Part shown: in pieces, positions 1 through 10,585 of the stretch
How the letters are laid out: each line of letters begins with the position of its first letter
Position numbering within the stretch: the first letter of the stretch is position 1
DNA from: Xanthomonas translucens pv. cerealis
GTDB taxonomy: Bacteria; Pseudomonadota; Gammaproteobacteria; Xanthomonadales; Xanthomonadaceae
DNA length: 64,000 bases
Direction of reading: 5' to 3'
Assembly (NCBI RefSeq): GCF_006838285.1
Contig: NZ_CP038228.1
Span: forward strand, 682,001 to 746,000
Notes under the pieces: model-generated
The model's database searches: none
Seen by the model: the letters and a program-made list of their open reading frames with translations, nothing else
Told to the model about the DNA's origin: nothing
Made by a program: the position numbers and the translations under genes

Positions 1-546
1 CTTATCGACATGCTGTTCATTGTGCTTTCGGCGGGTTTTGTGACCACCACCGGCGTCATCGGCAATGGCGTGCTGGCATTGCTGACGCATCCGCAGCAGC
101 TGCGCCTGGTGCTGAGCGGCCAGGTTCCGTGGGCGCAGGCGATCGAGGAGATTCTGCGTTGGGGCAGCAGTGTGACCAACCTGCCGTTCCGCTATGCCAC
201 ACAGGATGTGGAAATCGACGGCTGCACGATCCGGCGTGGCGAGGCCATCGTGATGGCGTTCCACGCGGCCAACCGGGACGAGCGCGCGTTCGGGCCGGGC
301 GCCGAGGCCTTCGATGTCACCCGGCAGCCCAACCCCCACCTGTCGTTCGGGCAGGGGCCGCATTTCTGCCTGGGCGCCGCGCTGGCACGCCTGGAATTGC
401 TATACGCGTTCCCGGCGCTGTTCGCGCGGCTGCACGAGCTGGCGTTGGCCGTCGCCCTGGAAGACATCGCCTATCAGCCTTCTTACGTCATCCGTTGCCC
501 ACAACGGCTACCGGTCACCTTCCGCCCTTCCATCGCCAGAGAGTGA
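1..546 (+). CDS. cyp115: Cytochrome P450 CYP115 (gibberellin C-3 oxidase), 3' part
   Basis: The frame is open from the first base, so the gene begins before the window; about 181 C-terminal residues of a roughly 400-residue P450 are visible. Seen: the I-helix core AGFVTTTG at the very start, the K-helix ExxR in EEILR, and the heme-binding loop LSFGQGPHFCLG with its cysteine. Its place directly upstream of CYP112 in a gibberellin operon matches CYP115, which in rhizobia and Xanthomonas 3-beta-hydroxylates GA9 to bioactive GA4. The family call therefore rests on fold plus position. The stop lies 8 nt before the CYP112 start, so the two are co-transcribed. Whether the missing N-terminal half is intact cannot be judged, and this matters because CYP115 is known to be lost or truncated in many operons. 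Confidence 0.85.
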   Translation, partial: LIDMLFIVLSAGFVTTTGVIGNGVLALLTHPQQLRLVLSGQVPWAQAIEEILRWGSSVTNLPFRYATQDVEIDGCTIRRGEAIVMAFHAANRDERAFGPGAEAFDVTRQPNPHLSFGQGPHFCLGAALARLELLYAFPALFARLHELALAVALEDIAYQPSYVIRCPQRLPVTFRPSIARE

Positions 547-554
547 GTCCTGTC

Positions 555-1757
555 ATGTCGCAAAGCGAATTGGTAGCGCTACCCATGTGGCGCGTGGAGC
601 ATATCGAGCCTTCGCCTGCAATGCTGATGTTGCGCGCGGACGGGCCGATCCACCGCGTACGCTTTCCCTCCGGACACGAAGGCTGGTGGGTGACGGGCTA
701 CGACGAGGCCAAAGCGGTCCTGTCCGATGCAAGGTTCCGCCCGGCGGGAATGCCGCCAGCCGAATTCACGCCGGATTCGGTGATCTTGGGTTCGCCGGGG
801 TGGCTGGTCTCGCATGAGGGCATTGAACACGCCAGACTGCGCACGATCGTCGCGCCGGCCTTCAGCAACCGGCGGGTGAAGCTGCTCGCGCAACAGGTCG
901 AGGCGATCGCCACGCAGTTGTTCGATGCGCTGGAGGCCCAGCCGCAGCCCGCCGATCTGCGGCGCGCGCTCTCCTTCCCGCTTCCGGCCATGGTCATCAG
1001 CGCGCTGATGGGCGTGCCTTATGAGGATCATGCCTTCTTTGCCGGATTGTCCGACGAAGTGATGACGCACCAGCACGAAAGCGGTCCGCGCAATGCGTCG
1101 CGCCTGGCATGGGAACAACTGCGCGCCTACATCCGCGGCAAGATGCGGGACAAGTGCCAGGATCCGGGCGATAACCTGTTGACGGATCTGATGCAGGCGG
1201 TCGATCGCGGCGAAGCGACCGAGGAGGAAGCGATCGGCTTGGCAGCGGGCATGCTGGTTGCAGGGCATGAGAGCACGGTCGCGCAGATCGAATTCGGGCT
1301 GCTGGCGTTGTTCCGCCATCCGCAACAGCGCGAGCGCTTGGTCGGCGATCCGTCCCTGGTCGAGAAGGCGGTGGAGGAAATCCTGCGCATGTACCCGCCG
1401 GGCGCCGGCTGGGACGGCATCATGCGCTACCCGAGGACCGACGTGACCATCGCAGGGGTGCACATTCCCGCGGAGAGCAAGGTGCTGGTCGGCCTGCCGG
1501 CGACCGCGTTCGATCCGCGCCATTTCAACGACCCGGAAGTCTTCGATATCGGACGCGACGAAAAGCCGCATCTGGCGTTCTCCTACGGTCCGCACTATTG
1601 CATCGGCGTCGCGCTGGCCAGGCTGGAGCTCAAGGTCGTGTTCGGCTCGATCTTCCAGCGCTTTCCCGGATTGCGCCTGGCGGTGGCGCCCGACGAACTC
1701 AGACTGCGCAAAGAGATCATCACCGGTGGATTCGAGGAGTTCCCGGTGCGCTGGTGA
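555..1757 (+). CDS. cyp112: Cytochrome P450 CYP112 (gibberellin C-20 oxidase)
   Basis: 400 residues. The protein closely resembles the rhizobial CYP112 family from its N-terminal PMWRVEHIEPSP segment to the C-terminal GGFEEFPV. The I-helix AGMLVAGHEST, ExxR (EEILR) and the heme loop FSYGPHYCIG with Cys349 are all present. In the characterised bacterial pathway CYP112 oxidises and removes C-20 of GA12, via GA15 and GA24, to give GA9. The ATG at 555 was chosen because homology begins there and it follows the CYP115 stop by 8 nt; the open frame extends further upstream but overlaps CYP115. It is a soluble cytoplasmic enzyme needing an electron donor, plausibly the operon ferredoxin. Confidence 0.95.
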   Translation: MSQSELVALPMWRVEHIEPSPAMLMLRADGPIHRVRFPSGHEGWWVTGYDEAKAVLSDARFRPAGMPPAEFTPDSVILGSPGWLVSHEGIEHARLRTIVAPAFSNRRVKLLAQQVEAIATQLFDALEAQPQPADLRRALSFPLPAMVISALMGVPYEDHAFFAGLSDEVMTHQHESGPRNASRLAWEQLRAYIRGKMRDKCQDPGDNLLTDLMQAVDRGEATEEEAIGLAAGMLVAGHESTVAQIEFGLLALFRHPQQRERLVGDPSLVEKAVEEILRMYPPGAGWDGIMRYPRTDVTIAGVHIPAESKVLVGLPATAFDPRHFNDPEVFDIGRDEKPHLAFSYGPHYCIGVALARLELKVVFGSIFQRFPGLRLAVAPDELRLRKEIITGGFEEFPVRW

Positions 1758-1849
1758 GGACGAATACCAGCGGACACGGCGATCTTTCGCCAGTTGCCGG
1801 CGCGCTTGCCGCGCGCCGGGCAGATCACTCAGCCAAGCAGGGAACCACG

Positions 1850-9429: not shown

Positions 9430-9490
9430 ACGTGCGGATGCGGCGGCGCATGCGATCCAAGGCGATGCCACGCGATCGTGCGACGGCGCG

Positions 9491-9526
9491 AAGGACGCGA
9501 AGGACGCGAAGGACGCGAAGGACGCG
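9491..9526 (+). repeat. Four perfect copies of a 9-bp tandem repeat (AAGGACGCG) before idi
   Basis: Four contiguous identical AAGGACGCG units end 3 nt before the ATG of the isomerase gene. Each unit contains an AAGGA Shine-Dalgarno-like core, and the last one is 7 nt from the start codon. In the isomerase frame the array would encode Lys-Asp-Ala four times if translation began at an upstream ATG (9398 or 9416). Confidence 0.9.
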
Positions 9527-9529
9527 AGC

Positions 9530-10585
9530 ATGAGCGATTGCGGTCTGAGCCGGCGCAAGGACGATCATCTGGATATCGTGCTGGATCGACGCGCGACATC
9601 GGTCACCGCCGCGGCCGCGGCCGGCTGGGACCGTATCCGTTTCGAACACTGCGCATTGCCCGAGTTGGATCTGGCGCAGATCGATCTGCGCGCCTCGCTG
9701 TTAGGAAAGGGGGTGCGGGCGCCGTTGCTGATCAGTTCCATGACCGGCGGCGCGTTGCGTGCGGAAGCCATCAATCGGCATCTGAGCGAGGCGGCGCAGG
9801 CGCTGGGGATCGCCATGTGCGTCGGTTCGCAGCGGGTGAGCTTGCGATCCGGGAACTCGCAAGGGCTGACGCGCGCGCTGCGGCGCCTCGCGCCGGACGT
9901 TCCCTTGTTGGCCAATCTCGGCGCCGCGCAACTGCGGGAAGCCGACGGTCTGGACCTGGCGCGTCGCGCAGTGGAGGCGCTGGAGGCCGATGCGCTGATC
10001 GTCCATCTCAATCCATTGCAGGAAGCGGTGCAGCCGGAGGGCGACCGCGATTGGAGCGGGATCCTGGCTCAGATTGCACGCGCCGTGCGCACCGTCGGAG
10101 TGCCGATCGTGGTCAAGGAAGTAGGCTCTGGACTGTCGGCATCGGTGGCTTGCGCGCTGGTCAATGTGGGCGTGGCGGCGATCGATGTCGCCGGAGCCGG
10201 CGGCACCAGTTGGGCCGCAGTGGAAGGCGCGCGCGCCAGCGATCCCGCCGACCGTGCGGTGGCGATGGCGTTCGCAGATTGGGGCATCCCGACCCCGCTT
10301 AGCGTGCAGGCAGTACGTAAAGCGTTGCCGGCGGTGACGTTGATCGCCTCGGGCGGGATCCGCGACGGTGTCGATGTGGCCAAGGCCATCCGCCTGGGGG
10401 CGGACATCGCCGGGCAGGCGGCCGGCGTGCTGAGTGCCGCGGCGCTATCCACCGAGGCGGTCGTCGCGCATTTCGAGATCGTGATACGCCAGTTGGCGGT
10501 TGCGTGTTTCTGTACGGGCTCGGCAGATCTGGCCGCGTTGCGTCAGGCGCGTCTGTTGCCTGCGTCGTATCCGCCCGCCGGCTGA
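9530..10585 (+). CDS. fni: Isopentenyl-diphosphate delta-isomerase, type II (FMN-dependent)
   Basis: 351 residues. Type II features are the N-terminal RRKDDHLDI, SSMTGG, the glycine-rich GSQRVSL, HLNPLQE with the catalytic Gln region, and the FMN phosphate site GAGGTSW with SGGIRDG. It interconverts IPP and DMAPP using reduced FMN, balancing the allylic starter for GGPP synthesis. An idi gene at the 3' end of gibberellin operons is known from plant-pathogenic gammaproteobacteria and absent from most rhizobial operons. The start at 9530 is chosen because family homology begins at RRKxDHL; the ATGs at 9398 and 9416 would add a low-complexity KDA-repeat leader. It is the last gene of the operon. 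Confidence 0.93.
   Translation: MSDCGLSRRKDDHLDIVLDRRATSVTAAAAAGWDRIRFEHCALPELDLAQIDLRASLLGKGVRAPLLISSMTGGALRAEAINRHLSEAAQALGIAMCVGSQRVSLRSGNSQGLTRALRRLAPDVPLLANLGAAQLREADGLDLARRAVEALEADALIVHLNPLQEAVQPEGDRDWSGILAQIARAVRTVGVPIVVKEVGSGLSASVACALVNVGVAAIDVAGAGGTSWAAVEGARASDPADRAVAMAFADWGIPTPLSVQAVRKALPAVTLIASGGIRDGVDVAKAIRLGADIAGQAAGVLSAAALSTEAVVAHFEIVIRQLAVACFCTGSADLAALRQARLLPASYPPAG

What the first reader, a model, noticed from the sequence alone, without database searches (positions are those of the whole stretch)
1..10585. Gibberellin operon that includes CYP115 and a type II idi
Ten genes in the order CYP115-CYP112-CYP114-Fd-SDR-CYP117-GGPS-CPS-KS-idi cover the route from IPP/DMAPP to GA4. 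Seen: all visible catalytic motifs are intact (heme Cys in four P450s, DDxxxxD/DDILD in GGPS, DADD in CPS, DDCND in KS). Known: most rhizobial operons lack CYP115 and idi and stop at GA9; plant pathogens often keep both and make bioactive GA4. Inference: this bacterium makes a plant hormone, likely to suppress jasmonate defence or alter host growth.
Basis: partly seen in the sequence, partly recalled or inferred. Interest (0 to 1): 0.85.

Follow-up and report, generated by a model that had tools for sequence, protein, structure and literature searches.

The report
Intact bacterial gibberellin A4 operon
A probable plant-pathogenic Xanthomonas carries a complete ten-gene operon for making the plant hormone gibberellin A4; this kind of operon, very probably in this very species, is already described, and the only unexpected thing seen is how it sits in the chromosome.

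Summary
Window 1-10585 carries CYP115-CYP112-CYP114-Fd-SDR-CYP117-GGPS-CPS-KS-idi on one strand. Upstream sequence shows that CYP115 is full length (411 codons; 690 bases lie outside the window). All ten frames are open, the named motifs are present, and dN/dS against a same-genus copy is 0.12-0.27. The idi passes the curated type 2 cut-off and is the only IDI found in the genome.
This is already known if the host is Xanthomonas translucens, which I infer: PMC6278637 reports the operon in all 48 X. translucens genomes. A type 2 idi is no distinguishing mark; rhizobial copies are annotated type 2 as well. GA output and jasmonate suppression are untested here.
One point not met in the sections I read: this operon and that of a second same-genus species (G019) lie in the same gap (DUF1304-fadE), which holds no operon in 18 of 18 other species. 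Yet the two operons differ about 2.5 times more at silent sites than their surroundings, and the two species are not sisters in a local gene tree.

The parts
1..546 (+). CYP115 (C-terminal 181 codons in the window; full gene is window -689..546, 411 codons): predicted GA9 3-oxidase that makes GA4
   Evidence: upstream contig sequence L006:5311-6546; heme motif FGQGPHFCLG; 79-80% identity over 98-99% to L094, L095 and L096
555..1757 (+). CYP112 (400 aa)
   Evidence: Pfam p450; subfamily name recalled and by published operon order
1850..3139 (+). CYP114 (429 aa), predicted ring-contracting P450
   Evidence: Pfam p450; subfamily name by published operon order
3141..3416 (+). ferredoxin of the operon (91 aa)
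   Evidence: Pfam Fer4_15/Fer4_13
3403..4245 (+). SDR (280 aa), overlaps the ferredoxin gene
   Evidence: Pfam adh_short_C2; 85% over 95% to the five other Xanthomonadaceae copies
4245..5588 (+). CYP117 (447 aa)
   Evidence: Pfam p450; subfamily name by published operon order
5735..6751 (+). GGPP synthase (338 aa)
   Evidence: Pfam polyprenyl_synt; DDLPAMDDD at residue 120, DDILD at 259
6944..8530 (+). ent-copalyl diphosphate synthase CPS (528 aa; GTG at 6983 is another possible start)
   Evidence: DADD at residue 307; solved relatives 6vpt and 5bp8, the latter named ent-copalyl diphosphate synthase; 75-79% to 80 rhizobial copies
8527..9429 (+). ent-kaurene synthase KS (300 aa)
   Evidence: end-to-end match to blr2150, PDB 4w4r (the PDB calls it uncharacterized, that it is the Bradyrhizobium ent-kaurene synthase is recalled); DDCND at 75, NDLHGRDKD at 207
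9487..9527 (+). 4.6 copies of a 9-base repeat (CGCGAAGGA) in the KS-idi spacer; each copy holds an AAGGA
   Evidence: TRF; two or more such copies not found in any of 85 related loci
9530..10585 (+). type 2 isopentenyl-diphosphate isomerase idi/fni (351 aa)
   Evidence: NCBIfam TIGR02151 371.7 bits, cut-off 281.3; only IDI found in the genome
10731..13208 (-). fadE-like acyl-CoA dehydrogenase (name recalled): right-hand neighbour that marks the insertion site, not part of the operon
   Evidence: full-length match at 92-99% in 19 of 19 other same-genus genomes

Best explanation
An intact, selectively maintained GA biosynthetic operon of the pathogen type. IDI balances IPP and DMAPP; GGPS makes GGPP; CPS makes ent-copalyl diphosphate; KS makes ent-kaurene; CYP117 oxidises it to ent-kaurenoic acid and beyond; CYP114 with the ferredoxin contracts the ring to GA12-aldehyde; SDR gives GA12; CYP112 gives GA9; CYP115 hydroxylates GA9 to bioactive GA4. 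Shown here: the genes, their order, full length, motifs and purifying selection. Taken from the literature on orthologues (the CYP117 step from memory): each reaction. Inferred: that GA4 is made in the plant and acts as a virulence factor by damping jasmonate defence. The host is most likely Xanthomonas translucens.
For: Ten open frames; motifs; KS to blr2150, IDI to type 2 IDI, CPS to solved CPSs. The window protein departs from columns invariant in all compared relatives at few places, none inside the motifs named above: 0 of 30 (Fd), 1 of 129 (GGPS), 1 of 95 (KS), 3 of 180 (CPS), 3 of 196 (CYP112), 3 of 119 (SDR), 5 of 163 (CYP114), 7 of 161 (CYP117), 9 of 205 (IDI), 27 of 298 (CYP115, only 7 relatives). 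dN/dS 0.12-0.27 against G019 for all ten genes. Function of orthologues: PMC6278637 and PMC7273348. Species: an Xoo2 'Xanthomonadaceae sRNA' lies in the window; within the genus 2 of 20 held genomes carry CPS. Published carriers of this branch are X. translucens and X. theicola, with the theicola copy nearer the alpha-rhizobia; here G019 is nearer to 51 alpha operons (86.7% mean) than the window is (82.9%).
Against: No metabolite or expression data. No sigma-70-like promoter in window -1600..-600 and no PIP box (TTCGB-N15-TTCGB) in -1414..-680, so the promoter is unknown. Over all ten genes the window copy departs from otherwise invariant columns somewhat more often than the G019 copy (59 against 43 places, summed) and has the longer branch (0.145 against 0.087).
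Confidence: 0.93

Rival explanations
1. The operon makes mostly GA9 or another ent-kaurene-derived product rather than GA4, because CYP115 or a downstream step is inactive or unexpressed.
For: CYP115 is the least constrained P450 here: dN/dS 0.27, 27 of 298 otherwise invariant columns differ (only 7 comparison sequences). Premature stops in CYP115 are published for 3 of 5 X. translucens pv. poae strains.
Against: Frame and heme motif intact; dN/dS well below 1; published pathogen operons of this kind make GA4.
Confidence: 0.05
2. History, rival A: one insertion in a common ancestor of the window species and G019, then plain vertical descent and loss elsewhere.
For: Same gene gap in both (DUF1304 left, fadE right), while the other 18 species have gaps of only 189-670 bases there and no CPS. 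Both carriers lack the DUF4442 gene that 13 of 20 genomes have at this spot, two of those 13 with stops in it. Protein tree joins window and G019, support 93/88.
Against: Composition-corrected silent distance between the two operons is 0.42 (seven core genes) against 0.169 pooled for 24 surrounding genes (highest 0.303; 9 of 10 operon genes lie above that, the short ferredoxin at 0.282 does not). Eight operon-less species share a clade with the window species that excludes G019, support 0.985, and 6 of these 8 keep the DUF4442 gene. No operon remnant found in the 18 empty sites. The spacers beside the operon do not align between the two carriers, so the junctions cannot be compared.
Confidence: 0.25
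3. History, rival B: two separate acquisitions that by chance or site preference used the same gap, as the published 'individually acquired' reading implies.
For: Operon divergence exceeds neighbour divergence. The alternative tree, G019 with alpha-rhizobia, is not rejected (p-AU 0.264) and agrees with silent distances (G019 to the alpha operon L042 0.24, window to G019 0.42) and with PMC6278637. The stretch left of DUF1304 also differs: the transporter there is only 40% identical in G019.
Against: Landing twice in one gap among thousands is unlikely unless it is a hotspot, and the other 18 genomes show no operon-sized cargo there. I saw no integrase or transposase among the ORFs beside the window operon (by eye, Pfam was run only on the named neighbours).
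Confidence: 0.3

Closest known systems
GA biosynthetic operon of Xanthomonas translucens (PMC6278637, passages and discussion section read)
   Same: content described for gammaproteobacterial phytopathogens, with CYP115; reported in all 48 sequenced genomes
   Different: no difference known; very probably the same operon. Its chromosomal site is not discussed in what I read.
GA operon of X. oryzae pv. oryzicola and Erwinia tracheiphila (PMC7273348)
   Same: gene order and content; GA4 production reported for such operons; E. tracheiphila IDI shown active
   Different: the six published operons whose GC was plotted are at least 7% above their surroundings; here 67.5% against 68.5-68.9% around it, so no such excess
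GA operon of alpha-rhizobia (80 loci)
   Same: core eight genes, about 61-91% protein identity where present
   Different: full CYP115 in 4 of 80, full idi in 34 of 80, both in 0 of 80; lower bounds
Four operon carriers of a second genus of the family (g17: G108, G187, G203, G347)
   Same: same operon, core identity about 80% in the three copies compared
   Different: not beside fadE: far apart on one contig in G347, on different contigs in the three drafts. Transposase domains within the fetched stretch in G347, G203 and G108. In the two copies that have CYP115 a PIP-box-like site lies upstream

Membership tests
bacterial GA biosynthetic operon | core genes cyp112-cyp114-fd-sdr-cyp117-ggps-cps-ks in this order | tested here: met
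   order as in PMC7273348
bacterial GA biosynthetic operon | class II DxDD cyclase (CPS) plus class I DDxxD synthase (KS) as separate proteins | tested here: met
   DADD and DDCND; blr2150 end to end; CPS structures
pathogen-type operon | full-length CYP115 as first gene | tested here: met
   411 codons, window -689..546
pathogen-type operon | idi as last gene, full length | tested here: met
type 2 IDI (fni) | score above the curated cut-off of TIGR02151; FMN_dh domain; alignment to solved type 2 IDIs through the NPxQExxQPEG stretch | tested here: met
   371.7 against 281.3 bits; FMN_dh; aligned in 2zru
bacterial GA biosynthetic operon | production of GA9/GA4 | not testable with these tools
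   needs LC-MS
X. translucens (host identity) | named genome record | tested here: inconclusive

The most novel reading that the evidence does not exclude
The operon occupies one fixed chromosomal address (DUF1304-fadE, where many relatives have a DUF4442 gene) in this branch of Xanthomonas, and moves between species as an allele by homologous recombination through the shared neighbours, with presence and absence alternating. That would explain both the shared site and an operon divergence older than the host species. The GC content, close to that of the host chromosome, fits this branch as the long-term home from which the high-GC operon passed to rhizobia.
Probability: 0.35. Interest if true: 0.5.

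Novelty: already known. Interest (0 to 1): 0.3.

Why it matters
It confirms a plant-hormone gene set in a probable crop pathogen and settles that CYP115 is intact. The added value is historical: same site, older divergence and no GC excess speak against a simple 'each species acquired it separately' account within this branch, and give a testable place to look for the source of the rhizobial operon.

Tried and rejected
Broken or half CYP115: rejected by upstream sequence. Extra IDI elsewhere in the genome: none found (IDI-2 one hit; IDI-1 no hit, where the control rang in 5 of 14 genomes). Operon remnants in the 18 empty sites: none above noise (best E 0.019 over 57 residues). Upstream regulatory signals: no sigma-70-like site in window -1600..-600; no PIP box before CYP115 in the window or G019; a perfect inverted repeat CGCTTTC-N6-GAAAGCG at window -817..-798 has no counterpart in L094, L095 or L096. 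Low codon bias as the sole cause of the high silent distance: not supported, because two neighbours with GC4 of 0.82 and 0.85 have d of 0.11 and 0.17, but only two such genes were at hand.

Weak points of the history part. The local species tree rests on 7 automatically picked ORFs (2320 columns), some of which may not be genes. One search's 'operon' set has 6 entries, one of them an antisense frame; the proper ten genes are. Thirty of 85 loci were dropped for incomplete core genes, and one search used 26 of the resulting 56 rows. The rhizobial set is the best 80 of 124 relatives found, and carriers outside rhizobia and Xanthomonadaceae (Erwinia, Pseudomonas, Paraburkholderia) were not in hand, so the operon tree is rooted only on g17. 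In G019 only residues 19-98 of the DUF1304 protein matched, so that gene may be damaged there. The family scan gave 7 of 395 at E 0.001 or better; one of these (G142, 34% over 74 residues) I do not count as an operon.

(PIP box, gibberellin and X. oryzae pv. oryzicola; HrpX, ent-kaurene and Xanthomonas) found no papers in this library. That says nothing of subscription journals. Passages of PMC11469919 were seen and not used.
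Full report
WHAT IS THERE. The window is G000:C1:682001-746000 of a 4.62 Mb single-contig genome. Its first 10.6 kb carry ten co-directional genes: CYP115 (-689..546), CYP112 (555-1757), CYP114 (1850-3139), ferredoxin (3141-3416), SDR (3403-4245), CYP117 (4245-5588), GGPS (5735-6751), CPS (6944-8530), KS (8527-9429), idi (9530-10585); gaps are at most 192 bases and three pairs overlap. The 690 missing bases of CYP115 lie just upstream on the same contig and are intact. P450 subfamily names follow the published operon order and are partly recalled. 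IDI is anchored by a curated model and solved structures. KS is anchored by an end-to-end match to blr2150, which the PDB calls uncharacterized and which I know from memory as the Bradyrhizobium ent-kaurene synthase.

IS IT INTACT. Motifs are present. Compared with 7 to 85 relatives per gene, the window protein differs at few columns that are otherwise invariant, none inside the motifs; summed over ten genes it does so at 59 places, the G019 copy at 43. dN/dS against the G019 copy is 0.12 to 0.27 for all ten genes, so all ten have been under purifying selection. The operon idi is the only isomerase gene found: one IDI-2 hit, no IDI-1 hit while the control rang in 5 of 14 genomes.

HOW IT WORKS. 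From the biochemistry of orthologues in PMC6278637 (passages and discussion) and PMC7273348 (outline, passages, introduction and first part of the results), with the CYP117 step from memory: IDI and GGPS supply GGPP, CPS and KS make ent-kaurene, CYP117, CYP114 with ferredoxin and SDR lead to GA12, CYP112 to GA9, and CYP115 to bioactive GA4. None of this was measured here. Jasmonate suppression is stated for X. oryzae pv. oryzicola and is an analogy.

DISTRIBUTION. With CPS as query, 2 of 20 genomes of the genus match. In the family 7 of 395 match; one is a weak short match, leaving the window genome, G019 and four genomes of another genus, g17. Eighty rhizobial loci were fetched out of 124 relatives: CYP115 is full length in 4, idi in 34, both in none; these are lower bounds because of contig ends. 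A megablast of plasmids gave 189 records (53 of them with at least 80% of the query), all Rhizobium, Sinorhizobium, Bradyrhizobium, Mesorhizobium, Azospirillum or Shinella.

WHO IS IT. An Xoo2 sRNA, a Xanthomonadaceae family, lies in the window. PMC6278637 says that X. translucens (48 of 48 genomes) and X. theicola, a divergent branch of Xanthomonas, carry the operon and that the theicola copy is nearer to rhizobia. Here the two carriers of the genus show just that contrast: G019 86.7% and the window 82.9% mean identity to 51 rhizobial operons. I infer X. translucens for the window and X. theicola for G019. If so, the finding is already published.

THE SITE. Left of the operon stand a GMC oxidoreductase, an MFS/TLC transporter and a DUF1304 gene; right of it fadE, an alpha/beta hydrolase and a TetR gene (fadE named from memory). 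In G019 the operon lies in the same DUF1304-fadE gap, though its DUF1304 gene may be damaged and the transporter left of it is of another type, 40% identical. The spacers on both sides of the operon do not align between the two. The other 18 genomes have the aligned parts of DUF1304 and fadE 189 to 670 bases apart, with no operon remnant. Thirteen of the 20 have a DUF4442 gene there, two of them with stops; both carriers and five non-carriers lack it. In g17 the operon is not beside fadE: about 1 Mb apart in G347, on different contigs in the three drafts.

THE PUZZLE. A local tree of 20 genomes puts the window species in a clade with eight operon-less species that excludes G019, support 0.985. 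At fourfold degenerate sites, corrected for composition, seven core operon genes of the two species differ by 0.42, against 0.169 for 24 surrounding genes pooled (single genes 0.085 to 0.303). The ten operon genes singly give 0.28 to 0.56; nine of ten exceed every neighbour, and the ferredoxin (40 sites) does not. The protein tree joins the two Xanthomonas copies with 93/88 support, but the tree with G019 beside the rhizobia is not rejected (p-AU 0.264). Same site but older divergence fits neither simple vertical descent nor two random acquisitions well. Exchange of an operon-bearing allele through shared neighbours would fit, but is not shown; faster silent evolution of the operon is not fully excluded.

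COMPOSITION AND CONTROL. The operon has 67.5% GC in surroundings of 68.5 to 68.9%, unlike the six published carriers plotted, where it stands out by at least 7%. The 725-base spacer before CYP115 is AT-rich (51.9% GC) and shows no sigma-70-like or PIP-box match. In two g17 copies a PIP-box-like site with a TACAGT downstream precedes CYP115. This suggests different regulation there, but is only a sequence match.

VERDICT. A real, complete and already described system. Interest is low to moderate and lies in the site and divergence pattern.

Noticed in passing
window 9487-9527: 4.6 perfect copies of a 9-base repeat before idi, each with an AAGGA that resembles a ribosome-binding site; no such tandem in any of 85 related loci. 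Could tune idi translation; copy number in other strains unknown.
   Followed up: partly
L095 about 14824 (- strand) and L096 about 3524 (+ strand): In two g17 genomes a perfect PIP-box-like site (TTCGB-N15-TTCGB) with TACAGT downstream and a short effector-like 5' fragment (start resembles XopE, from memory) precedes CYP115; no PIP box before CYP115 in the window and G019.
   Followed up: partly
L097 and L098: G187 and G108 operons show no CYP115; in G187 the operon starts at a contig edge, its CPS has one in-frame stop, and CYP114 and CYP117 match only in part.
   Followed up: no
L009, L012, L021, L031: Four rhizobial loci have a full-length CYP115 upstream of CYP112 on the same strand, about 0.5 kb away in three of them, although CYP115 in the gammaproteobacterial position is reported in print for one rhizobial strain only.
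   Followed up: no
window -817..-798: Perfect inverted repeat CGCTTTC-N6-GAAAGCG about 110 bases before CYP115, once in 84 kb; possible operator.
   Followed up: partly
window 29516-29634 and 39242-39321: SAM riboswitch (+ strand) and Xanthomonadaceae sRNA Xoo2 (- strand) by Rfam.
   Followed up: no
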